Part shown: positions 20,770 through 42,505 of the stretch, in pieces
Layout of the letters: every line of letters begins with the position of its first letter
Numbering within the stretch: the first letter of the stretch is position 1
Assembly: GCA_022842065.1 (NCBI GenBank)
Contig: JALHQH010000076.1
Coordinates: 1-43,736 of the forward strand
From: Caldilineaceae bacterium
GTDB lineage: Bacteria; Chloroflexota; Anaerolineae; Caldilineales; Caldilineaceae
Direction of reading: 5' to 3'
Length of the DNA: 43,736 bases
The notes under the pieces: model-generated
What the model saw: the letters and a program-made list of their open reading frames with translations, nothing else
Databases searched by the model: none
Told to the model about the DNA's origin: nothing
Made by a program: the position numbers and the translations under genes

Positions 20770-22962
20770 CTACTCTGTGCTGATGAGTGGTAGATAGATT
20801 TGTCGATCCAGCTCAGTATCAGGGGTGACGGTGGGGGATGGCGTAATGGTTGGTGTGGGTGTGCTGGTGACCGCCTGGGGAGCGAGGAGGGCAAATGTCG
20901 CAACGCCTGCTGCACTATCGCGCGCCGCATGGACGTAGCTAACAACCAGTTGATCGTTCTCAATATTGCGTTCGATCAACGTCATGCCGGTGCGCGACCA
21001 GGTTGTCTGCTCTACGGCGTAGGCAAAGAGCATAACCTCATCTTCGACCAGGCCCGTGAGATTCTCGCCCTGGTAGTCTACAGTGATAACCAGCGGCGTC
21101 TGGAAGCTAAAATTCGTGATGCGTACGCCATTTTGATAGGCTTCCAGGCTGAATGCGTGGCCCGCATAGGCTAAGGCTGCCGTCTTACTTGGTAAAACTG
21201 TCACTGGCCGTAGGAGGACGGTCGTCGGTTGTTCGACCGCCCCAGCTGGGAAAAGCAGGCGAATGCTGGCCCCATCGGTACTCGTAAAGCTCAGTACGCT
21301 TGCGCTGTCAGGCTGAATTACCAGACTGCTGCCCTCATCTGGTGCAATCAAAGGTGTTGCCGTTGGGGTGACTGTTAGTGCCGGCACGGTCTGGACGCTG
21401 GTGGGTGACGCGGTGGCGGTTGGTAAAACCGGTGTTGGCGTCAAGGTAGGACCACCCGGTGTGACGGTTGGTGTCGGGGTTGCTGTGCTGGTGGGGGTTG
21501 GCGTTGATGTGGCGGTGGCGACACCTGTTACCAACAGTGTGCCGCTGGCGCGATTGTTGCCCAAATTAATCTCCTGGTTGAGATTAGCGGCTGTTAGCTG
21601 GGCATAGAGCGTATAGTTGCCATCGACGCTGGGTTGCCATAGATATTCAGCCGTCAACGTCCGGTGGCAGCCGGTCACCACTTGGGGATAAAGTGGGGAG
21701 CTGCCCAATAGCTGACCGCCAGCCAGTGGATCGCCACGCCAAAAGTTTACGCCGACCGTTTGCGCCGCAATCCCACCCTGATTGATAAACCCGGCGCGTA
21801 GGCTGACGTTGCCAGGCCCCTGTTGTGTCGTCGGATTAATGGTAAAGTTAGTAAGGGCCAGATCAATGGTGGGAATGGTTACACCCTTGGTGTAGTTCGC
21901 GTAGTCAAGACCGAGCGGCATGATCTGGCGACTATCATGATCAAAAAGGTTGCCGTTGAGCCCAAAGTAGGTATTAATGTCGAATTCCCAGTAATTGAGA
22001 CTAAACCAGGCAAACTCTTGTACCAACCGATTGCCATCACCTGGCATGCCGATCTGGCTATCGGTGGTGTTGAGCATAAAATCAAAGGTGGCCAGCATAT
22101 AATCACGCACGCGCGCATGATCATAGCCATGATATTTGGAGAGCAAGATCCCATATTCAGAGATAATCAGGGGTTGATGGCGAAATCCGCGTGCGTTCAT
22201 CCAGTGGCGGAAATTCCGGATCTGCTGTTGGAAAGTGGCAAGGTTGCCATGTTCATTAAGTGTTGCATGGCAAGGGATCGCCTCACTCATATACGCCTCG
22301 AGCCCCGGGGGAACGCTGGCCCCCCATGAACAATTTTCCGGCAGAATAAAGTTATGGATGTCCCAAATATCGACTGGCATGGGGACGCCATATTGTTGTT
22401 GATAGATCGCCAGAATCATATCCAGGTAACGAAGCCGAATGGGCGTCGGCTGTACTACCCCACCAATGGCAATCCGGCTGCTGGGATCACGGCTCTTTAC
22501 AAAGCTGTGAATTGCCTGGTAAAAGTTTGCATATTGAGTTGCCGTTAGACCATCCTGTCCATAGCGATCTGGCTCATTGCCGATGATCCAGACCACCCCT
22601 GGATTGGCGTCAACCACAGGGCCTAACAGTTCGGGTAGACGCGTGAGGTCAATGCCGGCGCGAACCATCTGGTGGTGTTGGATCCCACCTGGTTGGGCGG
22701 GGACACGGCGGGTACCATAATTGTGATACCAGCCGGCACCCAAACGGGCTGCATCATAGGAATGAATATCAATGTTGATATCGGGGGCGACATTGAAACC
22801 GATGCGCTGATGGGCGGAAGGGTAAAGTGGACATTGCTGCGCCAATGCACTGCCGGTTACGGTCAGGATAAGCAACAGGGAGAGCAGTGTGCTGCAAACG
22901 AAGCGGTGGGGCCGGTTACGTGCCCCGCCTAAAGGTTGGTTGTTGTTTTGGTTGATTGTCAT
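20770..22962 (-). CDS. Secreted clan-A-like glycosidase-fold protein with CARDB-like domain and YLPL tail
   Basis: The 730-residue protein has a signal peptide (to about residue 41, SALA/QQ). Residues about 45-390 look like a TIM-barrel glycosidase, with VWIIGNEPDRYG (Glu130) and LIISEYGILLSKYHG (Glu269) in the places of the acid/base and nucleophile of clan A. Residues about 395-505 are a CARDB-like beta domain. A Thr/Pro linker (about 510-560) leads to a ZU5-like region (SLVIQPDSASVLSFTSTDGA) and then a second short Thr/Pro linker before the end RQIYLPLISTE. I chose the ATG at 22962 with GAGG 7 nt upstream. Upstream ATGs overlap the neighbouring gene. It is a diverged paralogue of 23938-26640 and 27901-30294. 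Substrate and exact GH family are not recognised. Confidence 0.8.
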   Translation of the reverse strand: MTINQNNNQPLGGARNRPHRFVCSTLLSLLLILTVTGSALAQQCPLYPSAHQRIGFNVAPDINIDIHSYDAARLGAGWYHNYGTRRVPAQPGGIQHHQMVRAGIDLTRLPELLGPVVDANPGVVWIIGNEPDRYGQDGLTATQYANFYQAIHSFVKSRDPSSRIAIGGVVQPTPIRLRYLDMILAIYQQQYGVPMPVDIWDIHNFILPENCSWGASVPPGLEAYMSEAIPCHATLNEHGNLATFQQQIRNFRHWMNARGFRHQPLIISEYGILLSKYHGYDHARVRDYMLATFDFMLNTTDSQIGMPGDGNRLVQEFAWFSLNYWEFDINTYFGLNGNLFDHDSRQIMPLGLDYANYTKGVTIPTIDLALTNFTINPTTQQGPGNVSLRAGFINQGGIAAQTVGVNFWRGDPLAGGQLLGSSPLYPQVVTGCHRTLTAEYLWQPSVDGNYTLYAQLTAANLNQEINLGNNRASGTLLVTGVATATSTPTPTSTATPTPTVTPGGPTLTPTPVLPTATASPTSVQTVPALTVTPTATPLIAPDEGSSLVIQPDSASVLSFTSTDGASIRLLFPAGAVEQPTTVLLRPVTVLPSKTAALAYAGHAFSLEAYQNGVRITNFSFQTPLVITVDYQGENLTGLVEDEVMLFAYAVEQTTWSRTGMTLIERNIENDQLVVSYVHAARDSAAGVATFALLAPQAVTSTPTPTITPSPTVTPDTELDRQIYLPLISTE

Positions 22963-22990
22963 GTTTGCCTCGGGGGAAGCGTTATTATCG

Positions 22991-23701
22991 TTAGGGTTGC
23001 GCCATGCCCACCAATTGGGCCACAACAAAGAGATAATGTGTATCTGAAAAGTCTGGCCAGCCCGTGACCAGGGTCAACTGTGCGGCGGTGGTCGGGGCTA
23101 GATAACGCTCCGCACGCGCTGTTTCGTCAGCCGTTGCCCCTGTCGCTGGAATTGGATCAGCGATTTCACTGACGGTGTAGATGTAGGTGCGTCCCTGCTC
23201 ATCTGTCACCAAAATCTCGTCACCCAGCATCAGCTCGCCACGCGCAAGCGGTGCAAAGACGGCTGCACCTTCCAGATGGTGGCCGGAGATAATTAGATTG
23301 CCGGCTGCGCCAACCGTGGCCGAATTAAGATGCCAACCGGCGCTCTGCAGCGGAATCTCCCAGACAGCCTGCCGCTCGCCTTCAACATCGGTGACGACCC
23401 AGGCCATTGGTTGAACCGGAACAGTGACATCAAGCGCTGCCAAATTTAGCCGAACCGGAGGGGCGGTTGCTGTGTCGGTGATGGTCTCCCCTGCGGTTAT
23501 TGCCGTCGTTGTCGTCGTTGTCGTGCTGGGGTTGATGCTCGCCGTCGCCACAACCGTTGGCTGCTCAGTGGGATTAGGCGTTGCTGCTGGTGGCTGTGCT
23601 GTACAAGCTGTCACCCCAATCAGTAATGACAGGCTACATACCAACCGATTAACTGCTGTGGGCAGGTGGTGGCATTGCTGCCACCGTGAAATTTGAGCCA
23701 T
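22991..23701 (-). CDS. Sortase-fold lipoprotein, catalytic Cys and Arg apparently lost
   Basis: The 236-residue protein has a lipobox (LIGVTAC near residue 33) and a Thr-rich spacer. A sortase-like domain follows from about residue 80: LNLAALDVTVPV, then NLIISGHHLEGAAVFAPLAR with the family His, and LMLGDEILVTDEQGRTYIYT. The final strand reads LTLVTGWPDFSDTHYLFVVA. Active sortases usually have TLxTC and later an Arg before the last strand. Here Cys is Gly (codon GGC, one base from TGC) and the Arg place holds Tyr. AAAGGA stands before the ATG. It may be a pseudoenzyme that binds rather than cuts. It stands between two genes for secreted proteins. Confidence 0.8.
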   Translation of the reverse strand: MAQISRWQQCHHLPTAVNRLVCSLSLLIGVTACTAQPPAATPNPTEQPTVVATASINPSTTTTTTTAITAGETITDTATAPPVRLNLAALDVTVPVQPMAWVVTDVEGERQAVWEIPLQSAGWHLNSATVGAAGNLIISGHHLEGAAVFAPLARGELMLGDEILVTDEQGRTYIYTVSEIADPIPATGATADETARAERYLAPTTAAQLTLVTGWPDFSDTHYLFVVAQLVGMAQP

Positions 23702-23725
23702 TATTTTCCTTTCTGGTCAATCTAC

Positions 23726-23763
23726 GCAGCGATCATTTTGTGAATTCACAAAATGATCGCTGC
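23726..23763. repeat. 38-bp perfect palindrome without a loop
   Basis: The 19-base half GCAGCGATCATTTTGTGAA is followed directly by its exact reverse complement, with an EcoRI-like GAATTC at the centre. It lies 25 nt upstream of the sortase-like gene start and 175 nt after the stop at 23938. No T-tract follows. The remaining part of the 236-nt gap (23764-23937) holds only a weak GCCGACT/AGTCGGC dyad. Confidence 0.9.
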
Positions 23764-23937
23764 ATAAAGTTAGGCATTTATACTTAGCCGCTTGCCACTC
23801 TGTTCGCCACACAAATGGCTCCTCACGGTGCCGACTAGGGCTGTGAGCTGCCTGCGTGGTGTATTTGTGGCAGTCGGCTACTCCTGAACTCAGCTCAGAC
23901 TAGCTATTGGTGCTCGACGCTTTGCATTTTACACTGT

Positions 23938-26640
23938 TCATTCCGTCGTCACCAATGGCAAGTAGAGCTTGGTGACATGCGGTCTGCCTGCAAAGAGCCC
24001 AAATTGGGTCAGATGGGCGATCTCGGCGGTCACTTGATTGAGGACCGGGTTGCGACTGGTCATCGTAATTCCATCAGCTTGCCAGTCGCTGCGCGTGGCG
24101 GCATAGTAGTATAACGTCACTTCCGCTTCATTTGCTCCTGCCAGATCTTCATCGTTATAGGTAACGGTTATGGTTGCCGGCTGGCCAAAGACAAAATTGT
24201 TAATGAGTAGACCATCCTGATAGGCCTCAATGGTGAAGTGCAAGCCCAAAAAGCGCAAGGTGCCAGTGTTGCCCAACGGACCGCGTTCTTCGCGTAGCAA
24301 AAATACGGTTGGCTGATCAAGCGCGCCGGCTGGAATTGCCAACTGCAGCTGATGATCACCCGTATTGACGGTAAGCGTTCCTCCTATCTGCGGTTCGACC
24401 AGTGCGCTTGTGGCCGCCGGCTCAGGTGTTGCCGTAGGCGCTGGCGCGGTCGGGGTTGTTGTGGCCGGTAGTGGTGGCGTAAAGGTCGGCGTTGCGGTCG
24501 CGATTTGGGTAGCAGTGAAGGTTGGCGTCGGTGTGCCCGTTGCTGAAGCGGTGGGCACCAGCGTCGCTGTTGCCGCTGTCGTACTAGACACAGTGGCCGT
24601 TTGCGTCGCCGTCGCTGTGCCCGTTGCGGTTGGCGAGGGTACCAAGGATGGGGTCGGCGTTGGGGTGTTGCTTGGTGTGCCGGTGTGCGTAGCCGTTTGT
24701 GTGGCTGTCGCTGTGCTCGTCGCACTTGGCAGGGGCGTCACGGACGGTGTCAGGGTTGGGGTGTTGCTTGGTGTGCCGGTGTGCATAGCAGTTTGCGTGG
24801 CGGTTGCGCTTGGTAGGGGCGTCACGGACGGTGTCAGCGTCGGCGTGCTGTCTGGTGTGCCCGTACGCGTGGCGGTCGCTGTCCCCGTCGTAGCTGGTGA
24901 TGGGGTCAGGGTTGGGGTGTTGCCAGGTGTGTTCGTACGCGTCGCGGTGGCCGTTTTTGTCATCGTGGCCGTGGCGGTCGCTGTCCCCGTCGCCGCTGGT
25001 GATGGGGTCAGGGTTGGGGTGTTGCCAGGTGTGTTCGTACGCGTCGCGGTGGCTGTTTTTGTCGTCGTGGCCGTGGGTGTGGGTGTCCCAGTGGCAATGG
25101 GGGTTGCTGTTTTTGTGGCTGTGGCCGTTCCAGTGGCAGTGGCTAACGCGGTAGCAGTGGCGGTGGGTGTTGCAACTGACGTATTGGCGACGGTGACGAT
25201 GACGGAGCCAAAGTTGTTGGTGAGGCTGCTTTCTTTGGCAAGATTGGCAGCCTGAAAGTCAGTAAAGATGGTATAGGTGCCGGCGGCGGTGGGTGTCCAA
25301 GTGAAATCACTCTGGTAGACCGGATGGCAACCGGCGAGGGCTTGGGGGACGGCAGCGCTGGTGCCGAGCAGTTGCCCACCGTTGCGCGGATCACCCAGCC
25401 AAAAGCGGACCTGCACGTTGTTAGCCGCAACGCCACCTTGGTTGACATAGCGGCTGCGCAGCAGGAGCGGTTGATTGAGGCTGGCGGCGGGTGGGTTGGC
25501 GGTGGTCTCAACGACTTTGAGATCGGTGACTTCGATGCGAATGCCCTTGGCGTAGGTCTCATAGTCGCTGCCCAAGGGTTTGAGCTGGCGGCTGGCATGA
25601 TCAAAGAGGTTGCCGTTGAGCCCTTGGCCGGTGGTGAGGCTGTATTCATAGAAGTTGAGGCTGAACCAGGCAAATTCCTGCACCAGGCGGTTGCCGTCGC
25701 TGGGCAGACCGGTCTGGCTGTCGGTGGTGTTGAGCATGAAGTTGAAACTGGCCAGCATGTAGTCGCGCACGGTGGCATGGGGAAAGCCATGATACTTGGA
25801 GAGCAGGATGCCATATTCGGAGACAATGAGCGGGCGCTCGCGATAGCCATTCGCCTGCATCCACTGGCGGAAGGCGCGCACGCGGCTCTTGAAGGTCTCG
25901 ATGTTGCCATGTTCGGCCAGGGTGGCGGGGCAGGGGATCGCTTCGCTGGCAAAGGCGTCCAGCCCTGGTGGGATCCCCGCCCCCCAGCCACAGCTTTCGG
26001 GCAGGTTGAAGCCATGCATGGTCCAGATGTCAACCGGCATGGCGACGCCGTAGCGTTGGCGATACTCGGCCAGCACCATGCTCAGATAGCGCAGGCGGAT
26101 GGGGGTGGCTTGCACGATGGGGGCTGCGGCGATTCGGCTGGTGGGATCGCGCTGTTTGAGGAAGGTGTAGACCGTATGATAGAAGACGGCATATTGAGCG
26201 GGGGTCTGTTGATCCTGACCATAACGATCCGGTTCATTGCCGACTGCCCAGACACTACCGGGGTTGGCATCAACCTGCGGCCCGACCGTTTGTGCCAGCG
26301 TGGCGGTGTTGGTGCCGCTGCGGATCATCTGATGATATTGCATCCCACCCGGATGGCTGGGGCTAAGTTGGCGATTGTAGTCATGATACCACCCGGCACT
26401 GAGCCGCGTCGCATCATAGTTGTTGATCGTTACCCCGCCATCGCGTGCGACGTTGACGCCCATGCGTTGATGGGGGGAGGGGTAGCTGTTACAGGTATTG
26501 CTCTGCGCTGCGACAGGGGTGGGCAGCAGCGCAACCGCAAGCGTGTTCATCAATAAGAATAACAAAAGCAAACAGCATAATGGCTGAGGGCGTCGCCCGC
26601 TGCTGGTGCGGCGCGAAATGAACAGGGATAGGCGGTGCAT
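23938..26640 (-). CDS. Secreted clan-A-like glycosidase-fold protein with very long Thr-rich linker and YLPL tail
   Basis: The 900-residue protein has a signal peptide ending near residue 45 (PVAA/QS). The barrel-like domain at about 47-370 has VWAVGNEPDRYG (Glu136) and LIVSEYGILLSKYHG (Glu275). A CARDB-like domain lies at about 372-485 and a Thr/Ala/Pro repeat linker of about 250 residues follows. The C-terminal module (GGTLTVNTGDHQLQLAIPAG onwards) resembles that of 20770-22962, and the end is TKLYLPLVTTE. I chose the ATG at 26640 because GGAG lies 9 nt before it. The first 485 residues are almost identical to those of 27901-30294. The linker probably spans the cell wall or is glycosylated (inference). 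Confidence 0.82.
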   Translation of the reverse strand: MHRLSLFISRRTSSGRRPQPLCCLLLLFLLMNTLAVALLPTPVAAQSNTCNSYPSPHQRMGVNVARDGGVTINNYDATRLSAGWYHDYNRQLSPSHPGGMQYHQMIRSGTNTATLAQTVGPQVDANPGSVWAVGNEPDRYGQDQQTPAQYAVFYHTVYTFLKQRDPTSRIAAAPIVQATPIRLRYLSMVLAEYRQRYGVAMPVDIWTMHGFNLPESCGWGAGIPPGLDAFASEAIPCPATLAEHGNIETFKSRVRAFRQWMQANGYRERPLIVSEYGILLSKYHGFPHATVRDYMLASFNFMLNTTDSQTGLPSDGNRLVQEFAWFSLNFYEYSLTTGQGLNGNLFDHASRQLKPLGSDYETYAKGIRIEVTDLKVVETTANPPAASLNQPLLLRSRYVNQGGVAANNVQVRFWLGDPRNGGQLLGTSAAVPQALAGCHPVYQSDFTWTPTAAGTYTIFTDFQAANLAKESSLTNNFGSVIVTVANTSVATPTATATALATATGTATATKTATPIATGTPTPTATTTKTATATRTNTPGNTPTLTPSPAATGTATATATMTKTATATRTNTPGNTPTLTPSPATTGTATATRTGTPDSTPTLTPSVTPLPSATATQTAMHTGTPSNTPTLTPSVTPLPSATSTATATQTATHTGTPSNTPTPTPSLVPSPTATGTATATQTATVSSTTAATATLVPTASATGTPTPTFTATQIATATPTFTPPLPATTTPTAPAPTATPEPAATSALVEPQIGGTLTVNTGDHQLQLAIPAGALDQPTVFLLREERGPLGNTGTLRFLGLHFTIEAYQDGLLINNFVFGQPATITVTYNDEDLAGANEAEVTLYYYAATRSDWQADGITMTSRNPVLNQVTAEIAHLTQFGLFAGRPHVTKLYLPLVTTE
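24590..25110 (-). repeat. Tandem repeats coding the Thr/Pro linker, 102-bp unit at one end
   Basis: The core GCTGGTGATGGGGTCAGGGT occurs at 24893 and again at 24995, a period of 102 bp or 34 codons. Weaker units with the sense TxTPSNTPTLTPS lie at lower coordinates. All are in frame within the linker of the secreted protein. The plus strand is G/T-rich and open in another frame, which is a by-product of the composition. Confidence 0.8.
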
Positions 26641-26666
26641 TGGGGTTTTCTCCATAATTGCGAAAC
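25184..26666 (-). repeat. 1483-bp duplicated block, copy 1
   Basis: This block matches 28838-30320 without any gap (constant offset 3654). By eye I counted 14 substitutions, all between about 26176 and 26581, and none in the remaining 990 bp at the low-coordinate end. It encodes the signal peptide, glycosidase-like and CARDB-like domains and stops at the linker. At the other end it stops within the -10 region of the promoter. Confidence 0.95.
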
Positions 26667-26693
26667 TATCACGCAAACTGAAAAATATGTCAA
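26665..26693 (-). promoter_or_regulatory. Promoter of the secreted protein at 23938-26640
   Basis: On the minus strand TTGACA (26688-26693), a 17-nt spacer and GATAGT (26665-26670) stand about 25 nt before the ATG, with GGAG between. The -35 is a full consensus match. The duplicated block ends at 26666, so the second copy does not share this promoter. Confidence 0.65.
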
Positions 26694-27030: not shown

Positions 27031-27480
27031 TTACCGCTGTGGTGTTAATTGTGCGTTGATATTGTTAACGACACTGCCTACTGCGAGGGGAATGTTAGTG
27101 GCTCTTTTCAGCGTCTTGGCATTATTGAAATATTCTGTTTTATAACGTGTTGCCTTAAATTCAATGCGAAAGATACCTGGCCGGCGATTGGTAAAGATGT
27201 AGGTGCCATTACTCGCGGTACGAACAGTAATCTCTTTCTTCCAGTTGGCTCCATTTTTGCGATAAAGGGTTACAGCGGCACGATTGATGGCTGCGCCTGT
27301 TCTTTCATTGGTTACCAACCCACTGATTGTACCACGGAGTGGGGGCAGTGTTGGCACACCGGCGGCTGTGAATTCATTGCTGCCCTTGATTTCAGCGGCA
27401 AAAGCACTGGCAATGAAGCTGGCCTGGACGAGAATAATGGCAATGATCACAAATAAACGCACTACCTTACGCGGTTGCAT
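27031..27480 (-). CDS. Secreted single-domain carboxypeptidase-regulatory-like protein
   Basis: The 149-residue protein has a signal peptide (VVRLFVIIAIILVQASFIAS, cut near AFA/AE) and one beta-sandwich domain. GTISGLVTNERTGAAINRAA then VTLYRKNG, and SNGTYIFTNRRPGIFRIEF, are typical of CarboxypepD_reg / Cna-B-like domains. The same domain is present in 27901-30294 (INRATVTLYRKQG, SNGQYTFKNRQPGTFRIRF), so it looks like a free copy of that module. AAGGGG lies upstream of the ATG at 27480; the frame extends to 27516, but that start is less supported. No YLPL tail is present (it ends NAQLTPQR). Confidence 0.8.
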   Translation of the reverse strand: MQPRKVVRLFVIIAIILVQASFIASAFAAEIKGSNEFTAAGVPTLPPLRGTISGLVTNERTGAAINRAAVTLYRKNGANWKKEITVRTASNGTYIFTNRRPGIFRIEFKATRYKTEYFNNAKTLKRATNIPLAVGSVVNNINAQLTPQR

Positions 27481-27667
27481 GGTGATGATTCCCCTTTGCA
27501 GACAGATGGCTATCAAAAATTACAACAAATTAATTAAATTTACGGTAAATGATATACTACAAGTAAATTGTATGGCAAAATTTAGGCAGGTCAAAATTTA
27601 ATATGGTTGTGAAGCGGAGTGAGGCATACACGGTTGACCATGTACCGCGTATATTTATACTTGGTTC

Positions 27668-27714
27668 TGTCACCAAGTAACATTTTATTCCGTGTAAAAT
27701 CTTACTTGGTGACA
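27668..27714. repeat. Inverted repeat, 13-bp arms extended by inner 6-bp stem
   Basis: Arms TGTCACCAAGTAA (27668-27680) and its complement (27702-27714) enclose ATTTTA / TAAAAT, separated from the outer stem by a single C-C mismatch. It is the first of three hairpins in the gap between 27481 and 27900. Confidence 0.85.
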
Positions 27715-27728
27715 ACTGCTGGACTATC

Positions 27729-27900: not shown

Positions 27901-30294
27901 TTAGCGTTGAATCAACGGCAGATAAAGCGTGGCTGCCGGCCTCAGTGCCAGCTGTAGTTCTATCGGAGTTTCCATGAGGGCGAAGATCGCGCTCGTTGTG
28001 GTGGCATAGCCTTCGGCTGTAACCGTTATATATAAACAACCTTCTGCGGTCTCCCAGGAGAAACGCCCGTCAGCGCTCGTCATTTGAGGGTTGAGCGCCG
28101 GTATAATGGGTGTGAACTCATCATCGGTCGGCAGAATAACTTCACCCACTGTTGGTGCATCTAGCTCGGTACAACTGATGGCTGGATCATCGTCCGGCGT
28201 CAGCTCAGCAATTTCGTACAGCCTTACCTCTGCCGTTGAAACTGGCTGGCCACTATTGGCATCAATGATCTGGCCACTCACATATATGGTGTCAATGCTG
28301 GTGGCGCTATTTTCGCGTTTGATGCGTAAGAGTGCATTGACATTGTTGATCGTCCCACCACTGGGTAAAACAAGTTCAGTTGCACGATTTAATTTAGTGG
28401 CATCATTAAAGTATTCGGTCCAATAACGTGATGCACTAAATCGAATGCGGAACGTGCCTGGCTGGCGGTTTTTGAACGTATATTGCCCATTGCTGTTGGT
28501 ACGGGTGACCGCTTCACGCCGCCATCGATTACCCTGTTTGCGATACAACGTCACGGTTGCGCGATTGATCGCTACGCTATTCGCACCACCATTTACGCTG
28601 CCACTAATGCTATTGGTCGTCGTGGCCGGCGTCCGGGTCGCCGTGGGCGTTGGCGTGATCGTTGCTACCACTGTCGTTGTTCTTACTGGCGTGGCAGTCG
28701 CGGTCGCCGTCTGCGTTGCCGCGGCATTAGGTGTCGGTGTCCGCGTCGGTGTCTGGGTTTGGGTCGGGGTCACCCCCGCATTCGGTGTCGATGTCATCGT
28801 CGGTATTGTCGTGGCAGTTGGGGTGGCGGCGGGGCCGTTGGCGACGGTGACGATGACGGAGCCAAAGTTGTTGGTGAGGCTGCTTTCTTTGGCAAGATTG
28901 GCAGCCTGAAAGTCAGTAAAGATGGTATAGGTGCCGGCGGCGGTGGGTGTCCAAGTGAAATCACTCTGGTAGACCGGATGGCAACCGGCGAGGGCTTGGG
29001 GGACGGCAGCGCTGGTGCCGAGCAGTTGCCCACCGTTGCGCGGATCACCCAGCCAAAAGCGGACCTGCACGTTGTTAGCCGCAACGCCACCTTGGTTGAC
29101 ATAGCGGCTGCGCAGCAGGAGCGGTTGATTGAGGCTGGCGGCGGGTGGGTTGGCGGTGGTCTCAACGACTTTGAGATCGGTGACTTCGATGCGAATGCCC
29201 TTGGCGTAGGTCTCATAGTCGCTGCCCAAGGGTTTGAGCTGGCGGCTGGCATGATCAAAGAGGTTGCCGTTGAGCCCTTGGCCGGTGGTGAGGCTGTATT
29301 CATAGAAGTTGAGGCTGAACCAGGCAAATTCCTGCACCAGGCGGTTGCCGTCGCTGGGCAGACCGGTCTGGCTGTCGGTGGTGTTGAGCATGAAGTTGAA
29401 ACTGGCCAGCATGTAGTCGCGCACGGTGGCATGGGGAAAGCCATGATACTTGGAGAGCAGGATGCCATATTCGGAGACAATGAGCGGGCGCTCGCGATAG
29501 CCATTCGCCTGCATCCACTGGCGGAAGGCGCGCACGCGGCTCTTGAAGGTCTCGATGTTGCCATGTTCGGCCAGGGTGGCGGGGCAGGGGATCGCTTCGC
29601 TGGCAAAGGCGTCCAGCCCTGGTGGGATCCCCGCCCCCCAGCCACAGCTTTCGGGCAGGTTGAAGCCATGCATGGTCCAGATGTCAACCGGCATGGCGAC
29701 GCCGTAGCGTTGGCGATACTCGGCCAGCACCATGCTCAGATAGCGCAGGCGGATGGGGGTGGCTTGCACGATGGGGGCTGCGGCGATTCGGCTGGTGGGA
29801 TCGCGCTGTTTGAGGAAGGTGTAGACCGTGTGGTAGAAGACGGCATATTGAGCGGGGGTCTGTTGATCCTGACCATAACGATCCGGTTCATTGCCGACTG
29901 CCCAGACACTGCCGGGGTTGGCATCAACCTGCGGCCCGACCGTTTGTGCCAGCGTGGCGGTGTTGGTGCCGCTGCGGATCATCTGATGATATTGCATCCC
30001 ACCGGGATGGCTGGGGCTAAGTTGGCGATTGTAGTCATGATACCACCCGGCACTGAGCCGCGTCGCATCATAGTTGTTGATCGTTACCCCGCCATCAAGC
30101 GCGACGTTGACGCCCATGCGTTGATGGGGCGAGGGGTAGCTGTTACAGGTATTGCTCTGCGCCGCGACAGGGGTGGGTAGCAGCGCAACCGCAAGCGTGC
30201 TCATCAATAAGAATAACAAAAGCAACCAGCGTAACGGCTGAGGGCGTCGCCCGCTGCTGGTGCGGCGCGAAATGAACAGGGATAGGCGGTGCAT
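27901..30294 (-). CDS. Secreted clan-A-like glycosidase-fold protein with two Ig-like C-terminal modules and YLPL tail
   Basis: The 797-residue protein shares residues 1-485 almost exactly with 23938-26640, including Glu136 in GNEPDRYG and Glu275 in SEYG. After a shorter Thr/Pro linker (about 486-560) it differs completely. A CarboxypepD_reg-like domain (about 565-655, like 27031-27480) is followed by a second such domain (TIYVSGQIIDANSGQPVSTA ... GRFSWETAEGCLYITVTAEG). The end is ATLYLPLIQR. The ATG at 30294 has GGAG 9 nt before it. The promoter region is unrelated to that of its twin, and I saw no strong -35/-10 pair upstream. Confidence 0.82.
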   Translation of the reverse strand: MHRLSLFISRRTSSGRRPQPLRWLLLLFLLMSTLAVALLPTPVAAQSNTCNSYPSPHQRMGVNVALDGGVTINNYDATRLSAGWYHDYNRQLSPSHPGGMQYHQMIRSGTNTATLAQTVGPQVDANPGSVWAVGNEPDRYGQDQQTPAQYAVFYHTVYTFLKQRDPTSRIAAAPIVQATPIRLRYLSMVLAEYRQRYGVAMPVDIWTMHGFNLPESCGWGAGIPPGLDAFASEAIPCPATLAEHGNIETFKSRVRAFRQWMQANGYRERPLIVSEYGILLSKYHGFPHATVRDYMLASFNFMLNTTDSQTGLPSDGNRLVQEFAWFSLNFYEYSLTTGQGLNGNLFDHASRQLKPLGSDYETYAKGIRIEVTDLKVVETTANPPAASLNQPLLLRSRYVNQGGVAANNVQVRFWLGDPRNGGQLLGTSAAVPQALAGCHPVYQSDFTWTPTAAGTYTIFTDFQAANLAKESSLTNNFGSVIVTVANGPAATPTATTIPTMTSTPNAGVTPTQTQTPTRTPTPNAAATQTATATATPVRTTTVVATITPTPTATRTPATTTNSISGSVNGGANSVAINRATVTLYRKQGNRWRREAVTRTNSNGQYTFKNRQPGTFRIRFSASRYWTEYFNDATKLNRATELVLPSGGTINNVNALLRIKRENSATSIDTIYVSGQIIDANSGQPVSTAEVRLYEIAELTPDDDPAISCTELDAPTVGEVILPTDDEFTPIIPALNPQMTSADGRFSWETAEGCLYITVTAEGYATTTSAIFALMETPIELQLALRPAATLYLPLIQR

Positions 30295-30320
30295 TGGGGT
30301 TTTCTCCATAATTGCGAAAC
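28838..30320 (-). repeat. 1483-bp duplicated block, copy 2
   Basis: This is the second copy of 25184-26666, collinear and without indels. It covers the 5' region, signal peptide, barrel and CARDB-like domain. Beyond both ends the sequences of the two loci diverge at once. Confidence 0.95.
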
Positions 30321-30471
30321 AGGTGCTAAAAACAATCATGCAGCTAATCATGCGTAACGGTGCAGGCTACGCTGGATTGGCTGCAAGCAACACAGGGGGG
30401 ATGGGCATGTTGCTTGCCGTGGTGTAACGAGTACGAAAGGATAAAACGTCAAAAAGCGATTTATTTCTATG

Positions 30472-30577: not shown

Positions 30578-31645
30578 TTAACGGAAGCGTGGCGGCCGCA
30601 TCGGTGGCATGGCAAAGGTAAGCCCGGCCAGTGCCTCCGCACCCTCGGCAGTATCGACGACCGCCAGGTTATCAATCAGCGCACCGTTGCCCAGGCTGCT
30701 GGCAACTTGTACGGTGACCGTTGCCGTCAGGCGGCTCCCGGCGGCGATTTCCGGCCAGTTGATGGCAAAGAGCAGGCCATCGGCTACCGTACCAGTGGTA
30801 TTTACTTCGCCCTGTGCGCTGGTGCTGGTGGTCATATAGCGCAGCGTGGCGGGTAAATCGTTGCGTAGACGCACATTGGTCAACGGCTGGTCGCTCCGAT
30901 TATGAACGACAAACTGGATCTCTACCACCTGGCCTTGCCAGACAAAGGCTGGGCTAGGGCGCATCTCCAATACCAGGGGCACGGTCAGCGCGTTGGTACC
31001 AGTGATGCTCGCCGAGCCGTCAACGGCTGCGGCACTGCTATTGGCCGTCACAGGGATGGTGGCCATTGCTTCTGCATCGGCCAGCGATACAAATTGGGCG
31101 CTAACCCAGCCTGGTCGGCCAGCACCTGTGCCGCAGCAGATATACAACCAACTGCCACCGCTATCGCGGCCCAAAACTTGGACTGTTTCGCCCATAAAGA
31201 TTGTGTCAACAATGTTGGCCCCTGTGTTTGGCTCCCTGCGCACATTGAGCGTTACTGTGTTGACTGTCCCATTCACCGCCGTATCAGATGTTTGCGGTGC
31301 GGCCGGCTCTGGGCTGGTATTGCCAGTGGCGTTCCCACCAGGGTTACTGTTATTGCCGCCTGAGTTGTTGTTACCATTATTCGGTGTACGGGTTGCGGTT
31401 GGATTGGGCTGTGGTACACCACCGCCACCAGATGGTCGATCGTCGTCTGCCGGTGTAGGGCTAGGGAAGGGTGTATTGGTTGGTGTCAAAATCGCATCGG
31501 GTCTGGGTACGGTGTTAACATCGGGGGTCGGGGTGGCAGCTTGACCAAAGGTGGCATCACTGGTGTAGAGGGAGAGGAACGCAAAGGTGATGACAGCAAC
31601 TGCGATCCAGTAACGGGTGAAGAAAGTCGATAAAGCGCTAATCAT
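30578..31645 (-). CDS. Secreted SH3b / DUF11-repeat protein
   Basis: The 355-residue protein has an N-terminal membrane segment or signal (FFTRYWIAVAVITFAFLSLY) and a Pro/Asn/Gly-rich linker (about 50-130). A bacterial SH3 domain follows (TVTLNVRREPNTGANIVDTI ... GETVQVLGRD ... GRPGWVSAQFV, about 135-205) and then a DUF11-type beta domain (VEIQFVVHNRSDQPLTNVRL, about 235-355). SH3b domains often bind cell-wall peptides (family knowledge). I chose the ATG at 31645 because GGAGG lies 10 nt before it; the frame extends to 31696. It has no YLPL tail. Confidence 0.85.
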   Translation of the reverse strand: MISALSTFFTRYWIAVAVITFAFLSLYTSDATFGQAATPTPDVNTVPRPDAILTPTNTPFPSPTPADDDRPSGGGGVPQPNPTATRTPNNGNNNSGGNNSNPGGNATGNTSPEPAAPQTSDTAVNGTVNTVTLNVRREPNTGANIVDTIFMGETVQVLGRDSGGSWLYICCGTGAGRPGWVSAQFVSLADAEAMATIPVTANSSAAAVDGSASITGTNALTVPLVLEMRPSPAFVWQGQVVEIQFVVHNRSDQPLTNVRLRNDLPATLRYMTTSTSAQGEVNTTGTVADGLLFAINWPEIAAGSRLTATVTVQVASSLGNGALIDNLAVVDTAEGAEALAGLTFAMPPMRPPRFR

Positions 31646-31773
31646 AAGTTGAAAGATCCTCCAGGCATAAATAAAGCTCAATGATGGGGGCGACAATGGC
31701 TTGGCCTTGAGCTACAAAACAGTGGTTTTTAGCATCACAAGATTCATATTTCGACAATCAGACTGCGGTTGGG

Positions 31774-36100: not shown

Positions 36101-37364
36101 GATGATCATCAGCACGGTTGTCATTATGGCGGTCGTCATCAGTGCCACCCAAACCGTCGTGGTGTTGGACGAAAAAGAGACCGCCGGCTTTGAGATCCGC
36201 GCGGACAGTACACTGCTCAGCTTTTTCTCGCCTTTGCGCGACTTTAATCGCGCCGTTGCTGACCAACAGGCAAATCCGGATTATCCAATGCTGCAAGCGA
36301 TCGCCGCCGTCAGCAGCATCGCCGAACAGGATCTGTGGGCCAAAGCAACGACGCAAGATTTTTGGTCCAATGTTGAAGTTGCTGGTGTTGACGCCGGCTA
36401 CTGGGAACAGGCGGCCCAAGTCTACAGCTTCCGTCAACGTGCTCCCGGCTTTGCCGATGATGCTGCCGTGTGGGCCGCATTGCAAACGCGCACCGATGTG
36501 GCGATTATCACCCCCAACGTGCTGATCACCAGTGACAGCGAAGATACTTTTCCCTTTGGTGATGGGGAGGATGGGCCACGGCGGCGGCGTTTTGAAGAGG
36601 ATGGCCAGTACTATGGCCCCTTCCGTCTGCAAAGTGCCGGCACCTCAACTGACCCCTTGCCGGAACTCTATCTCGACTTGAGTACCAGCACCGATGACAG
36701 TACGCCTCGCCAACGCGTCCAAGTGATTGCGGCCCTGGCGGAGAATACTAGCTTGGCGGGGACACGGCTGCAACTTAATCGAGGTACACTTGACCCAATC
36801 AACACCACCGCCGTGCAACCGAGTCGTTTCTATGTCAAAGTGAACGAAGGGACAGATGTGCGTGCGGTAGCGCAAGAGGTGGAGCGCGCCTTTATCGGCA
36901 ATGGCCTGAATGTTGTCGTGCTGGCCGAGAGCTTTGCCCAAGGTCAGGCTTTTGCTCGTGGTATTCTGCGCCTCTTCCAGGGCTTTATGGCGTTGGGTCT
37001 ATTGGTGGGGATTGCTGCATTGGGGGTGATCACCAGCCGTACCGTGGTGGAGCGCCGCCAGCAGGTTGGGATGTTGCGCGCGATTGGTTACCAATCCAAC
37101 ATGGTTGCGCTCTCCTTCGTGCTGGAGGCCAGCTTTATCGCTATCACCGGGCTGCTCATCGGTGCCGTGACTGGGATCGTTCTTGGCGAAAGTATCGTCC
37201 GTACTTTCTTCACTGCATTGACGCCGGGCACGACCTTTAGCTTGCCGTGGGGGCAGATTGGGCTGATCCTCATTGGTTCCTACCTGGCGGCCTTGTTGGC
37301 AACAATTGTCCCTGCTTACGGTGCGGCGCGGATTTATCCGGCGGAGGCCTTGCGCTACGAGTAG
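33183..37364 (+). CDS. Very large FtsX-type ABC permease with two FtsX domains
   Basis: The 1393-residue protein begins with two membrane segments ([18 protein letters not shown] and [20 protein letters not shown]), then a soluble region of about 550 residues. The first FtsX block follows ([20 protein letters not shown] then [11 protein letters not shown]), then several extra membrane segments, a second soluble region of about 220 residues and a second FtsX block ([20 protein letters not shown] to the end). Two FtsX cores in one chain let it pair with an ATPase dimer without a second permease. The first soluble region contains a Leu/Thr/Gly-rich insert (about residues 240-400) with no family that I know. 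Cargo or signal is unknown. Confidence 0.92.
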
Positions 37365-37405
37365 CGTAGCAATTGATTGCTCGACAATTGTATAAGTTAT
37401 TTCGT

Positions 37406-37465
37406 CATTTAGGGTCGTGTACGCCGTAACAGTCAGTGCGGCGTACACGACCCTAAATGCTTTTT
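37406..37465 (+). terminator. Intrinsic terminator after the ABC operon
   Basis: Perfect 21-bp arms (37406-37426 and 37439-37459) flank a 12-nt loop, and the plus strand continues CTTTTT. It lies 42 nt past the permease stop. Confidence 0.92.
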
Positions 37466-37491
37466 GCGGCAAGGTCACTCTGCGGTATAGT
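37464..37491 (+). promoter_or_regulatory. Promoter of fhs
   Basis: TTGCGG (37464-37469), a 16-nt spacer and TATAGT (37486-37491) form a good sigma-70-type promoter directly after the ABC terminator. The predicted start near 37498 gives a leader of about 60 nt before the GTG. Confidence 0.7.
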
Positions 37492-37556
37492 GAATAGACA
37501 GTCACTAATCCAACCATCCACCCAATATACTAACCACAGTCCAAAGGAGTACTCTC

Positions 37557-39269: not shown

Positions 39270-39315
39270 CTGATGCGTAATCAGTGGCGATCTCAGTGTT
39301 GATCTGGTGACGATA

Positions 39316-39363
39316 CAAAAGAGCCGCAGTTGGCGTAGTTTCACGCCAACTGCGGCTCTTTTG
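39316..39363 (+). terminator. Terminator of fhs
   Basis: Perfect 21-bp arms (39316-39336, 39343-39363) with a 6-nt loop lie 46 nt past the stop. The stem ends in CTTTTG, so the T-run is short and partly paired. AAAAG at the 5' side would pair as an A-tract. Confidence 0.8.
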
Positions 39364-39413
39364 ATTGATTGAAGAGAACTAAATCTCTGTCAAAACTGGT
39401 TCAATGGGATCTT

Positions 39414-39527
39414 AGGGGGGTGACAAGATCGCCCTGGGCTAAAGCCGCAGGGCTACCGAACAACGCTGGGTAAACCCAGCTAAGGGAGGGGGATCCGGCG
39501 TTGTTCGGTAGATCTTGTCAACCCCCT
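39414..39527. repeat. Multi-branch inverted repeat (cruciform-like)
   Basis: An outer stem of 17 bp with one mismatch (39414-39430, 39511-39527) encloses a small hairpin (GCCCTG 39431-39436, CAGGGC 39448-39453). It also encloses a second 14-bp perfect stem (39453-39466, 39498-39511), which itself encloses CTGGGT-AA-ACCCAG (39466-39479). Adjacent stems share a base. This is a folded branched structure rather than a single hairpin. It lies between the converging fhs and beta-helix genes and may end transcription from either side. Confidence 0.85.
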
Positions 39528-39604
39528 GAATTCCGGTTGTGCCTCAAAACTTAGTTGCGCGGGTGCTATTCCCGATTTAGCTTAAGGCTTCTGCTGTAGG
39601 ACAC

Positions 39605-42505
39605 TCATGGCCCCAGATTAAGGATTAAGGGGAACAGCGTAACCATGGTGACTTCTTCCCCTTCGTATGCACCCAAATCGCAGTTTGACCCCTGTGCCCG
39701 TGTTTCGCCACGCTGATCCTGGTTGTTGATGGGCGGGGCCGCGCAAACGGCTGGATCGCCGACATCAAGGGCTATGCTACCAAAGGCCAAGGCATGGGTA
39801 AGGGTTGGCCCCTCGTTATTTTGCAGCGGACTCAACCGGGGCTCCCCCGTTAGCGCGGCCTGACAACTGCCATCGCTATCCAGATTGAAATCGCCGGCTG
39901 TGACCCCATTGCAATCAGCACCGGTCGCATCCAGATGGGCGATAATGCTATTGGTGACGGTCAGCCCAGCGCTGTTGTTAATCCCTCCAGCGCCATTGGT
40001 GCTCTCATTCTCATAGATCGTCACATTGATCAGCGTCGCTGTGCCCAAGTTCTGTAGCCCACCCCCTGTTGCGACAGCCTGATTGCCACTGAGTGTGCTA
40101 TTGCTCACGACTAATGTGCCACCGTCGTTATAGAGTGCACCACCCCCTTGGTCAGCAGCGGTGCCACTGGCCAAATTGTTGCTGAGTGTCGTCTTATCAA
40201 CCACCAGTCGGCCGGTTGCCGAGTTCCAGAGGCCACCACCCTCAGCGCTGGCGCTGTTACTCATCACTGTACTGGTTGTAACCGTTACATTGCCGGCACC
40301 GGTAATATGCAAACCACCACCATTTCCAGGATTGGCCCCGGTTTCGTTTTCATTGAGCATCACGCCCGCAATAGTCACTGCGGTTGTGGTGGCTCCACCA
40401 TTATCCTCAATGCCGCCGCCGGCACGGACCGCACTGTTCCCTGTGATCGCGCCGCCATTAATGGTGAGGGTGCCTTCCTTGTTGAGAATACCACCCCCAC
40501 TGCCGGCTGTGCCCGTCGCTTGGTTGTTACGAATCTGCGCATTGAACACATTGAGGGTTCCGCCATCATTATAAAGCGCGCCACCCCCCTGATCAAGGTC
40601 ATTGCCGCTGGCAACATTACCACTGAGCACGGTATCGCTGACAATCAAGGTCCCGACGGCGGAGTTCCACAGGCCACCGCCTTCTGCACTGGCTGTGTTG
40701 CTAAGCACATTGCTGCCGCTTACTAATGCCGTACCCGGTCCAGTGATATGGAGGCCGCCGCCGTTGCCAGGGCTCGCACCTGTTGCATTGCCGATCAAAT
40801 CCACCGCCGTAATCGTAATCGCCACAGTACTTGTCACCGTAGCATTGACTTCGATGCCACCACCGGCGCGCGTCGCCTGATTGTTTGCCAGCGTGCTGTC
40901 GCTAAGATCGAGCGTACTGCCAGGCACAACGAGAATACCACCGCCGCTGCCTGCCGTGCCGGTTGCCCGGTTGTTGCTGATCGTGCTATTGCGCACAATC
41001 AACGGGCCACCATCACTAAAGAGGCCGCCACCACCTTGGTCAAGCGCATTACCATCTGCGCGATTGTTGCTGACCACCGTGCCACTGATCGTTAAGGTGC
41101 CCACCGCCGAGTTCCAAAGGCCACCGCCCTCGGCGCTCGCCGTGTTACTGATCACTTCACCACCAGTCACCGTGACGGTGCCGGGGCCTGTAATATGGAG
41201 CGCACCACCATTGCCAGGATTACTGCCTGTCGCATTAAAGTTCAAGGACACACCAGCGAGCGCTGCCGTTACACTGTCGGTGATCGTGGCGTTGACTTCA
41301 ATGCCACCACCGGCGCGGCTGGCGCTGTTGTTGCTGATAATCCCACCGGTGACAGTCAGGGCACTGCCGGGGACAACCAAAATGCCACCACCACTACCCG
41401 AGGTACCCAGTGCGGTATTGCTAATAATCGTGGTATTGCTAATGGTTAGGGGACCACCATCGCTGAAAATGCCGCCACCCCCTTGATCGGGGCTATTGCC
41501 GGTGGCACTATTGCCACTGATCGTGACATTTTCAACTGTAAGCAAGCCTGGCTGCGAATTCCACAGCGCACCCCCTTCTTGCACAGCCAGATTGCCGCTG
41601 GCGCTCCCCGCCGTCATCGTCACGACCCCGTTGGCAGAGATATGCAAGCCCCCGCCATTAATACCGGCGGTATTGTTGTTAAGACCAATGGCCGTAAAAG
41701 TGACAGTGCCGCCATTGGTTTCAACGCCACCACCAGCCCGCGCTGCTCTGTTATTGGCAATCTCGCCACCCTGTACGGTTAGGCTACCGGCATTGAAAAT
41801 CCCGCCCCCATTACCAAGACCAATGACTGCACTGTTGCTAATGACGTTAGTGTTAGAGAGAATCAGCGTACTCGCAACGCCATTAAAGATCCCACCACCG
41901 CCTTCACCGGGCGCATCGCCTTGGCTGACATTGCCACTGACGACACTGTCAAATAGGCTCAGGGTTGCCCCGCCCAGATTGGCAATCCCACCACCATTTT
42001 CATCGGGGGTGGCGGTGACCCCATTGCGGATGGTAACCCCTGTAATCGTGATCTCGACACTGTTGGAAATCTGCAAAACGCGGTCGAGTCCCGGCAGCGG
42101 CAAGATGCCACTTTGGATAATACTTTGCTCAGCGCCTGCCCCGCTGATGGTCATGGACGCACGCAGATCCAAATCGCCAGTCGCATTGACATCTTCACTT
42201 GCACCAGGCAAGAGGAGCTGATGTTCCCCTGCTGGCAGCGCAACGGTGTAAGGGGCCGTCCCCGTCCGTGTGCAGCCACCAAAATCACTATCGCTATTGG
42301 CACTTTCCACCGCTTCGCGCAATGCACAAGTCGTTGGATCGATGCCAAAATCGTCTGTTGGCGTATCGACGGTAATCGTGCCGGCTGCATAGGCTGCGGT
42401 TGGCAGTAAGAGCAGGCAGATGATGATCAATCCAGCAATTGGGGTAAGCAAGTAAGTATAGGGGCGACGTGAGTTGTCTCGGCTCAATTGAGATACAGAG
42501 AGCAT
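39605..42505 (-). CDS. Giant secreted beta-helix surface protein (CSLREA / choice-of-anchor type)
   Basis: The 966-residue protein has a signal peptide (LTPIAGLIIICLLLLPTAAY, cut near AYA/AG). A CSLREA-like start follows (ITVDTPTDDFGIDPTTCALR), then many right-handed beta-helix coils rich in Gly-Gly and Asn. The C-terminal cap NNQDQRGETRAQGSNCDLGA is the choice-of-anchor Q motif. The end VTLFPLILNLGP resembles the YLPLI tail of the other secreted proteins with Tyr replaced by Phe. Units of about 147-150 residues repeat at least four times. The ATG at 42505 has AAAGGAG before it. Such proteins are adhesins or polysaccharide-binding surface proteins (family knowledge); the ligand is unknown. 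Confidence 0.9.
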   Translation of the reverse strand: MLSVSQLSRDNSRRPYTYLLTPIAGLIIICLLLLPTAAYAAGTITVDTPTDDFGIDPTTCALREAVESANSDSDFGGCTRTGTAPYTVALPAGEHQLLLPGASEDVNATGDLDLRASMTISGAGAEQSIIQSGILPLPGLDRVLQISNSVEITITGVTIRNGVTATPDENGGGIANLGGATLSLFDSVVSGNVSQGDAPGEGGGGIFNGVASTLILSNTNVISNSAVIGLGNGGGIFNAGSLTVQGGEIANNRAARAGGGVETNGGTVTFTAIGLNNNTAGINGGGLHISANGVVTMTAGSASGNLAVQEGGALWNSQPGLLTVENVTISGNSATGNSPDQGGGGIFSDGGPLTISNTTIISNTALGTSGSGGGILVVPGSALTVTGGIISNNSASRAGGGIEVNATITDSVTAALAGVSLNFNATGSNPGNGGALHITGPGTVTVTGGEVISNTASAEGGGLWNSAVGTLTISGTVVSNNRADGNALDQGGGGLFSDGGPLIVRNSTISNNRATGTAGSGGGILVVPGSTLDLSDSTLANNQATRAGGGIEVNATVTSTVAITITAVDLIGNATGASPGNGGGLHITGPGTALVSGSNVLSNTASAEGGGLWNSAVGTLIVSDTVLSGNVASGNDLDQGGGALYNDGGTLNVFNAQIRNNQATGTAGSGGGILNKEGTLTINGGAITGNSAVRAGGGIEDNGGATTTAVTIAGVMLNENETGANPGNGGGLHITGAGNVTVTTSTVMSNSASAEGGGLWNSATGRLVVDKTTLSNNLASGTAADQGGGALYNDGGTLVVSNSTLSGNQAVATGGGLQNLGTATLINVTIYENESTNGAGGINNSAGLTVTNSIIAHLDATGADCNGVTAGDFNLDSDGSCQAALTGEPRLSPLQNNEGPTLTHALAFGSIALDVGDPAVCAAPPINNQDQRGETRAQGSNCDLGAYEGEEVTMVTLFPLILNLGP
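40224..41700 (-). repeat. Four in-frame repeats of about 437-450 bp in the beta-helix gene
   Basis: The segment coding EGGGLWNSA recurs with its markers at about 40224, 40661, 41108 and 41557, spacings of about 437, 447 and 449 bp. Neighbouring blocks (GSGGGILVVPGS, RAGGGIE, GNGGGLHITGPG, DQGGG) keep the same order in each unit. DNA identity between the two middle units is high. Confidence 0.85.

What the first reader, a model, noticed from the sequence alone, without database searches (positions are those of the whole stretch)
20770..42505. Shared C-terminal YLPL[IV] tail on secreted proteins: a possible sorting signal
Three secreted proteins end RQIYLPLISTE, TKLYLPLVTTE and ATLYLPLIQR although their C-terminal modules differ, and a fourth, unrelated beta-helix protein ends VTLFPLILNLGP. 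The tail lies within 8 residues of the end in the first three and is not followed by a membrane helix, so it is not an LPxTG signal. Keeping the tail while domains are exchanged suggests selection for sorting or anchoring. From memory, similar tails occur widely in Chloroflexota; I cannot search to confirm.
Basis: partly seen in the sequence, partly recalled or inferred. Interest (0 to 1): 0.75.

Follow-up and report, generated by a model that had tools for sequence, protein, structure and literature searches.

The report
Chloroflexota YLPL tail on exported proteins
Many unrelated exported proteins in several Chloroflexota genomes end in the same seven or so residues (Tyr-Leu-Pro, two hydrophobic residues, any residue, Arg or Lys), which looks like an undescribed address tag for the cell surface, although its receptor is not known.

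Summary
Three proteins sharing an N-terminal domain end YLPL[IV]; two are 99% identical over 1,483 bp, then carry unrelated C-terminal modules, yet both end YLPL. The fourth (LFPLIL) is a variant of its relatives' tails. In 17 tail-rich Chloroflexota genomes 216 of 520 DNA matches to Y-[LF]-P-hyd-hyd-x-R are followed by TRR (a stop or TGG); in 17 tail-poor genomes, 1 of 179 (both sets mostly picked by tail number). Tailed proteins carry signal peptides (39 of 47; neighbours 84 of 276) and come from 27 homology clusters. In one beta-helix family the tail takes the slot held in other members by the T9SS sorting domain or a membrane helix. No family model or paper was found for it. Best reading: a short C-terminal surface-sorting or retention tag read by an unidentified receptor. 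Omp85 is absent (0 of 47); sortase and exosortase do not track the tail. Beside the first tailed gene lies a sortase-fold lipoprotein whose catalytic Cys is Gly in 108 of 108 homologues: a lineage-specific candidate partner, not the general receptor.

The parts
20770..23028 (-). Exported protein, glycosyl-hydrolase-like domain + CARDB-like domain + Thr/Pro linker + C-terminal module; ends YLPLISTE
   Evidence: Pfam matches of the two domains are below the curated cut-offs
20773..20796 (-). C-terminal tail YLPLISTE (before the stop at 20770-20772)
22991..23701 (-). Sortase-fold lipoprotein with the catalytic Cys replaced by Gly (TLVTGWP); lineage-specific candidate partner
   Evidence: Pfam Sortase 52 bits; 108 of 108 homologues have TGWP; invariant lipobox-type Cys33 in 37 aligned; AlphaFold model mean pLDDT 82.9; the 50 Foldseek matches listed are sortases
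23938..26676 (-). Exported paralogue, 99% identical to the next over its N-terminal part; shares a distant C-terminal module with 20770-23028; ends YLPLVTTE
23941..23964 (-). C-terminal tail YLPLVTTE
27901..30351 (-). Exported paralogue with a CarboxypepD_reg-type C-terminal module; ends YLPLIQR
27904..27924 (-). C-terminal tail YLPLIQR; no confident structure predicted (pLDDT about 30)
39605..42505 (-). CSLREA / beta-helix protein with a choice-of-anchor Q domain at residues 889-949, then the variant tail
39608..39637 (-). Variant tail LFPLILNLGP

Best explanation
The tail is a short C-terminal address tag, roughly (V/I/L)-(Y/F)-(L/F)-P-(L/I/V/M)-(V/I/L)-x-(R/K)-COOH, with looser endings (STE, TTE, NGQ, QQ) in the family to which the window's proteins belong. 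It is carried by large exported proteins that mostly lack another anchor. After export the tail is read as a linear peptide by an extracytoplasmic receptor or transferase that holds the protein at the cell surface. Shown: conservation, position at the very end, export bias, independence from the preceding domain, varied synonymous codons (selection on the peptide rather than the DNA), and its place in the slot of known sorting signals in a homologous family. Inferred: that the tag sorts or anchors, that a receptor exists, that the tail is unstructured, and that the cells have no outer membrane. Unknown: the receptor, and whether the tail is cleaved or linked.
For: Position: 216 of 520 motif sites are followed by TRR (stop or TGG; about 1 in 16 expected if bases were random) in 17 tail-rich genomes, 1 of 179 in 17 tail-poor ones; both sets were picked mostly by tail number. 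G002 to G004, not picked for tails: 43 of 92. In the 40 regions fetched around hits, 44 of 44 pattern matches end in a true stop. In 251 Chloroflexota genomes 15 have 6 or more hits and none has 6 or more of the backwards control; those 15 hold 182 hits against 15 control hits. Signal peptides: 39 of 47 tailed ORFs against 84 of 276 others in the same regions, p=1e-11. In regions not chosen for tails, a looser motif (set after seeing the tails) is at the C-terminus of 9 of 161 exported against 4 of 536 other ORFs. Among signal-peptide ORFs, tailed ones rarely have 3 or more membrane helices (1 of 43 against 94 of 330). 49 tailed proteins fall into 27 homology clusters, 36 for the 130 residues before the tail, with several synonymous codons at each position; scanning 44 of them gave matches to 95 Pfam families. 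Of 120 beta-helix homologues 51 carry the T9SS domain PF18962, 17 the tail, 4 a C-terminal hydrophobic helix and 48 none of these; no tailed one carries either of the others. A Lys-ending form exceeds its control in four genomes with 0 or 1 Arg-form hits.
Against: No experimental localisation. No receptor, protease or transferase was found that tracks the tail. The tail lacks the membrane helix usual in bacterial C-terminal sorting signals, so retention before processing is unexplained. 236 of 251 sampled genomes show only background for the Arg form (112 hits against 156 control). In regions not chosen for tails the strict motif is rare: 2 of its 15 sites lie at a C-terminus (p=0.03), and the tail's bias to signal-peptide ORFs is not significant in either set of such regions alone (2 of 104 against 0 of 187; 2 of 146 against 0 of 260; p=0.13 each). 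With the looser motif 13 of 551 sites are terminal over all ORFs (p=0.14), and the reversed motif, which some of the same tails also match, is likewise biased to exported ORFs (5 of 161 against 1 of 536). The scarcity of lipoboxes among tailed proteins is weak: 2 of 43 against 45 of 330 (p=0.14), or 2 of 41 against 39 of 202 among those with at most one helix (p=0.02).
Confidence: 0.6

Rival explanations
1. The Cys-less sortase-fold lipoprotein beside the window's first tailed gene binds the LP-containing tail in its former substrate groove and holds the protein without covalent linkage.
For: The gene overlaps the start of the 20770-23028 ORF. The Gly is in 108 of 108 homologues and the fold is kept. 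22 values of longest-contig length occur in both the sortase-like table (108 rows) and the tailed-protein table (120 rows), compared by eye, which suggests conserved linkage. Canonical sortases read an LP-containing peptide (recalled).
Against: Strong homologues (over 200 bits) occur in 4 of 47 genomes searched, all four fetched because of this gene; the best in any other genome is 90.8 bits. One of the four (G001) has no Arg-form tail. In the 11 genome loci of the distant branch a tailed gene lies in 1 (L007; a second regex hit, in L006, is a membrane protein and I dropped it).
Confidence: 0.12
2. The tail is a substrate of ordinary sortase or exosortase.
For: All 19 genomes that I classed as tail-bearing have sortases.
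Against: 24 of the other 28 have them too (four of these 28 proved to carry the Lys form). Exosortase: 3 of 19 against 6 of 28. In 40 sortase regions the sortases I could read mostly keep Cys (one shows Ser), and in five of the regions the ORF next to the sortase ends in an LPxTS-like motif, a hydrophobic helix and basic residues, i.e. a different signal; tails there are no denser than in random regions (2 of 172 against 2 of 85 exported ORFs). The window's tails have no membrane helix.
Confidence: 0.06
3. The tail acts after export in another way: as a strand that plugs into another subunit or an S-layer, as a folding or quality-control mark, or as protection of the C-terminus from proteases.
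For: A hydrophobic strand-like heptamer with a conserved Pro could add to a beta sheet; the stretches before many tails look Ig-like by eye. Nothing here separates this from anchoring.
Against: It occurs on proteases, propellers, lectins and beta helices alike and takes the slot of known sorting domains in one family.
Confidence: 0.16
4. The tail is a remnant: the last strand of a shared C-terminal domain, or chance.
For: Some tailed proteins share C-terminal modules, including two in the window.
Against: 36 C-terminal clusters among 49 proteins; Thr/Pro linkers precede many tails; 99%-identical copies with unrelated C-terminal modules both have it.
Confidence: 0.04

Closest known systems
LPXTG / sortase cell-wall sorting signal
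   Same: Short C-terminal motif on exported proteins, contains Leu-Pro, often follows linkers
   Different: No membrane helix or basic tail after the motif; no Thr-Gly; no link to sortase genes in the tests made
PEP-CTERM, GlyGly-CTERM and MYXO-CTERM tags with their processing enzymes
   Same: One C-terminal tag on many unrelated exported proteins in a genome; what looks like a polysaccharide locus lies next door in the window
   Different: GlyGly-CTERM is motif + hydrophobic region + basic residues and MYXO-CTERM is called tripartite (starts of abstracts in the listing, PMC6219818 and PMC11980579; the rest, and PEP-CTERM's helix, recalled); here about seven residues and no helix; exosortase in 3 of 19 tail-bearing genomes
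Type IX secretion C-terminal domain (PF18962)
   Same: Occupies the same slot in the same beta-helix family
   Different: PF18962 is a whole domain and its system needs an outer membrane (recalled); Omp85 in 0 of 47 genomes here
Outer-membrane beta-signal read by BamA
   Same: Short aromatic/hydrophobic C-terminal peptide (recalled)
   Different: No Omp85 in 47 genomes searched; the Pfam matches shown for tailed proteins are of soluble extracellular types
Choice-of-anchor domains (NCBIfam)
   Same: The fourth window protein carries choice-of-anchor Q, and among 44 other tailed proteins two match Q, one D and one T; such domains lie before varying anchors (recalled)
   Different: The tail is not one of the anchors I know to be described for them (recalled)

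Membership tests
LPXTG sorting signal | LPxTG-like motif followed by a membrane helix and basic residues | tested here: not met
   No helix in the last 60 residues of the four window proteins; tails end 3 to 7 residues after Pro in 107 of 110 tailed homologues
LPXTG sorting signal | Linked to or co-occurring with sortase | tested here: not met
   Sortase in 19 of 19 tail-bearing and 24 of 28 other genomes, so it does not discriminate; no neighbourhood enrichment
PEP-CTERM / exosortase | Exosortase in the genome | tested here: not met
   3 of 19 tail-bearing genomes, 6 of 28 others
Type IX secretion cargo | C-terminal Por-type domain PF18962 | tested here: not met
   0 of 17 tailed beta-helix homologues are listed with it
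Type IX secretion cargo | SprA translocon in the genome | tested here: inconclusive
   0 of 47, but no control genome rang either
BamA beta-signal | Omp85 / outer membrane | tested here: not met
   0 of 47, control rings in 7 of 14
Shared C-terminal sorting tag (general kind) | One short C-terminal motif on many unrelated exported proteins of one genome | tested here: met
Shared C-terminal sorting tag (general kind) | Dedicated processing enzyme or receptor | tested here: inconclusive
   Sortase, exosortase, Omp85 and SprA searched; none explains it, others not searched
Shared C-terminal sorting tag (general kind) | Tag needed for localisation | not testable with these tools
   needs experiment
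Sortase (for 22991-23701) | Sortase fold | tested here: met
Sortase (for 22991-23701) | Catalytic Cys in TLxTC (Cys-His-Arg triad, recalled) | tested here: not met
   Gly in 108 of 108; the residue I take for the catalytic His, and the Arg, are not invariant

The most novel reading that the evidence does not exclude
Several Chloroflexota lineages that lack Omp85 have their own class of C-terminal surface-sorting signal: a seven-residue tag without a membrane helix, read by an unknown extracytoplasmic receptor; in the Caldilineaceae-type lineage of the window part of the reading has been taken over by a lipid-anchored sortase fold that lost its catalytic Cys and became a binding protein.
Probability: 0.15. 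Interest if true: 0.9.

Novelty: new variant of a known kind. Interest (0 to 1): 0.72.

Why it matters
How bacteria of this deep and abundant phylum place proteins on their surface is, to my knowledge, little known. A short tag shared by many unrelated exported proteins would let surface proteins be listed from sequence alone, would give meaning to many 'hypothetical' exported proteins, and points to an undiscovered receptor or enzyme. A sortase fold that has lost its Cys throughout a family is a second, separate lead.

Tried and rejected
Tried and rejected or inconclusive. (1) Sortase as the machinery: present in tail-bearing and other genomes alike, and sortase neighbourhoods are not enriched in tails. 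(2) Exosortase: does not track the tail. (3) Outer-membrane beta-signal: no Omp85 in 47 genomes. (4) T9SS by SprA: nothing rang even in the controls, so no conclusion. (5) A recurrent neighbour of tail genes: only generic families, such as response regulators, ABC transporters and glycosyltransferases (names read from the sequences), recur in 40 regions. (6) The Cys-less sortase as the general receptor: strong homologues in 4 of 47 genomes only. (7) The first genome-contig scan found nothing; the second gave 11 loci of the distant branch of the sortase-like family, where a tailed gene lies in 1 of 11. (9) Papers: searches gave no paper on this tail among the titles and abstract starts I read (one search listed 20 of 167, 25 of 40); no paper was opened. 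(10) The first run of the clustering script failed on a command-line error; its cluster counts are void and were redone. (11) A looser motif was set after seeing the tails; its reversed form is a poor control because some of the same tails match both.

Rows dropped before counts and choices that bias them: ORFs cut by a region end were left out of the signal-peptide counts; one chance hit ending YLPIF, itself cut by a region end, was dropped from the tail lists; three tailed ORFs of 1,800 residues or more were left out of the reference list, and 44 of the remaining 46 were passed. The 32 rows of the alignment were picked after the tails had been seen and all have one. Signal peptides were called by a crude hydropathy rule of my own, not by a trained predictor. 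The 47 genomes and the 34 were chosen by hand, mostly by tail number. The pattern ends in TRR, which also allows TGG (Trp): one such match is seen among the listed hits of the tail-rich genomes, but not all their hits are listed. My list of PF18962 carriers was copied by hand.

Full report
What is in the window. On the minus strand three exported proteins (20770-23028, 23938-26676, 27901-30351) share a glycosyl-hydrolase-like and a CARDB-like domain (weak Pfam matches) and end YLPLISTE, YLPLVTTE and YLPLIQR. A 161-residue exported protein between them (27031-27516) is a free relative of the third protein's module (56% identity over 95 residues) and has no tail, so the tail is not part of that module. 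The fourth protein (39605-42505) is a CSLREA / beta-helix protein with a choice-of-anchor Q domain just before its tail.

The tail is conserved where its surroundings are not. The homologue search found 351 proteins and listed 120; where named by organism, these come from Caldilineaceae, Caldilinea, unplaced Chloroflexi or soil metagenome. Of the 120, 102 match a strict and 110 a looser tail pattern; several of the rest look like fragments or weaker variants. Among the 110, four residues follow the Pro in 67; the last residue is Arg or Lys in 49, Gln in 26, acidic in 18. In an alignment of 32 of them no column after residue 476 is invariant except the Pro of the tail; those 32 were picked after the tails were seen and all have one, so this shows the poor conservation of the rest rather than that of the Pro.

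The fourth protein belongs. Its relatives include proteins ending RYLPLLYFNAGP, KYFPLIYFNAAP, TYLPLVNR and the like; the 71%-identical relative ends TLFPLILNDGP. Of the 120 relatives listed (of 3,152 found), 51 carry the T9SS sorting domain PF18962, 17 a strict tail and 4 a C-terminal hydrophobic helix, and 48 none of these; no tailed protein carries either of the other two (one of the four helix calls, P0245, looks to me more like a weak tail variant). Two of the 17 tailed ones are named, both Caldilineaceae; a third named Caldilineaceae member (P0234) has no tail. The tail thus sits in the slot of known sorting and anchoring devices. This is the strongest hint of function.

Beyond the window. 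A DNA pattern for Y-[LF]-P-hyd-hyd-x-Arg followed by TRR (a stop, or TGG) was run over 251 Chloroflexota genomes. 236 have 0 to 4 hits; 15 have 6 to 23 (no backwards control reaches 6). Those 15 hold 182 hits against 15 control hits; the other 236 hold 112 against 156. Without the last codon, 520 sites were found in 17 tail-rich genomes, 216 of them followed by TRR, against 1 of 179 in 17 tail-poor genomes. Fourteen of the first 17 were picked for their tail number and most of the second 17 for lacking hits; G002 to G004, fetched for another reason, give 43 of 92, while G001, fetched likewise, gives 0 of 11. In the 40 regions fetched later, 44 of 44 pattern matches end in a true stop. A Lys-ending form exceeds its control (5 or 6 hits against 0 to 2) in four genomes with 0 or 1 Arg-form hits.

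What carries it. In 40 regions around hits, 39 of 47 complete tailed ORFs have a signal peptide by my crude rule, against 84 of 276 other ORFs (p=1e-11). Among signal-peptide ORFs the tailed ones are long (median 780 residues) and rarely multi-pass (1 of 43 with 3 or more helices against 94 of 330); lipoboxes are fewer, but weakly so (2 of 43 against 45 of 330, p=0.14; 2 of 41 against 39 of 202 among those with at most one helix, p=0.02). 49 such proteins fall into 27 homology clusters, or 36 for the 130 residues before the tail, and scanning 44 of them gave matches to 95 Pfam families, among those shown clostripain, subtilase, propellers, lectin-like and beta-helix families. Synonymous codons vary at every position, so the peptide and not the DNA is selected. 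In 60 regions not chosen for tails the strict tail is found in 2 of 104 and 2 of 146 signal-peptide ORFs and in none of 447 others (p=0.13 for each set); a looser motif in 9 of 161 exported and 4 of 536 other ORFs (p=0.0005), with the caveat that the motif was loosened after the fact, that its reversed form is also biased (5 of 161, 1 of 536), and that over all ORFs its position is not significantly terminal (13 of 551, p=0.14).

What reads it. Omp85 is absent from 47 genomes (control rings in 7 of 14), which argues against an outer membrane and a BamA signal. Sortase is in 19 of 19 tail-bearing and 24 of 28 other genomes; exosortase in 3 of 19 and 6 of 28; four of those 28 later proved to carry the Lys form. 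Forty sortase regions are not enriched in tails, and the sortases readable there mostly keep Cys. Only generic families recur as neighbours. AlphaFold gives the tail of the third protein no confident structure (pLDDT about 30; shallow alignment), which fits, but does not show, a free peptide. I therefore propose a tag read by an unknown extracytoplasmic receptor.

The sortase-like neighbour. ORF 22991-23701 overlaps the first tailed ORF and encodes a sortase fold (Pfam 52 bits; model mean pLDDT 82.9; the 50 Foldseek matches listed are sortases). Its catalytic Cys is Gly in 108 of 108 homologues, the residue I take for the catalytic His and the Arg are not invariant, and a lipobox-type Cys is invariant in 37 aligned. 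It looks like a lipid-anchored binding protein. It could read the tail in the window's lineage, where the two are often on contigs of the same length (22 shared values), but strong homologues are in only 4 of 47 genomes (G001 to G004, fetched because of it), one of which has no Arg-form tail.

Known or new. The NCBIfam and Pfam scans gave no model for the tail of the window's proteins, and none among the best-populated families shown for 44 others (25 of 54 and 25 of 95; short motifs can escape hmmscan). Seven paper searches gave nothing on it (listings only, no paper opened). C-terminal sorting tags are a known kind; one without a membrane helix in genomes lacking Omp85 is, to my knowledge, a new variant. 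Function remains inferred.

Noticed in passing
22991-23701: Sortase-fold lipoprotein family with Gly in place of the catalytic Cys (TGWP) in 108 of 108 homologues; seemingly non-catalytic and conserved.
   Followed up: partly
30578-31696; L001 to L007, L010, L011: Near the Cys-less sortase in the distant branch lies a protein that ends G[LM]PPxxxPxF and one more residue, in 9 of 11 loci; the window's SH3/DUF11 protein ends AMPPMRPPRFR. A second conserved C-terminal tail, close to the sortase-like gene.
   Followed up: no
23938-26676 and 27901-30351: Recent duplicate: 99.06% DNA identity over 1,483 bp, then unrelated C-terminal modules, as if modules were swapped by recombination.
   Followed up: partly
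122-18000: What looks like a polysaccharide locus (glycosyltransferases, flippase-like, heptose-phosphate genes, ligase-like membrane proteins; names from reading the sequences) with G+C down to 0.395 at 14-16 kb, beside the tailed genes.
   Followed up: no
G242:C1:822316-830446: Four near-identical tail DNA sequences about 2.7 kb apart, probably a run of four tailed genes.
   Followed up: no
L026: A tailed protein with two tail-like motifs in series (VLYLPVVVYDESKPNEMYLPLIQR).
   Followed up: no
P0136, P0141: Two homologues of the tailed protein end instead in a short Asp/Asn-rich, Cys-containing stretch that looks dockerin-like by eye; Pfam gave no dockerin hit.
   Followed up: partly
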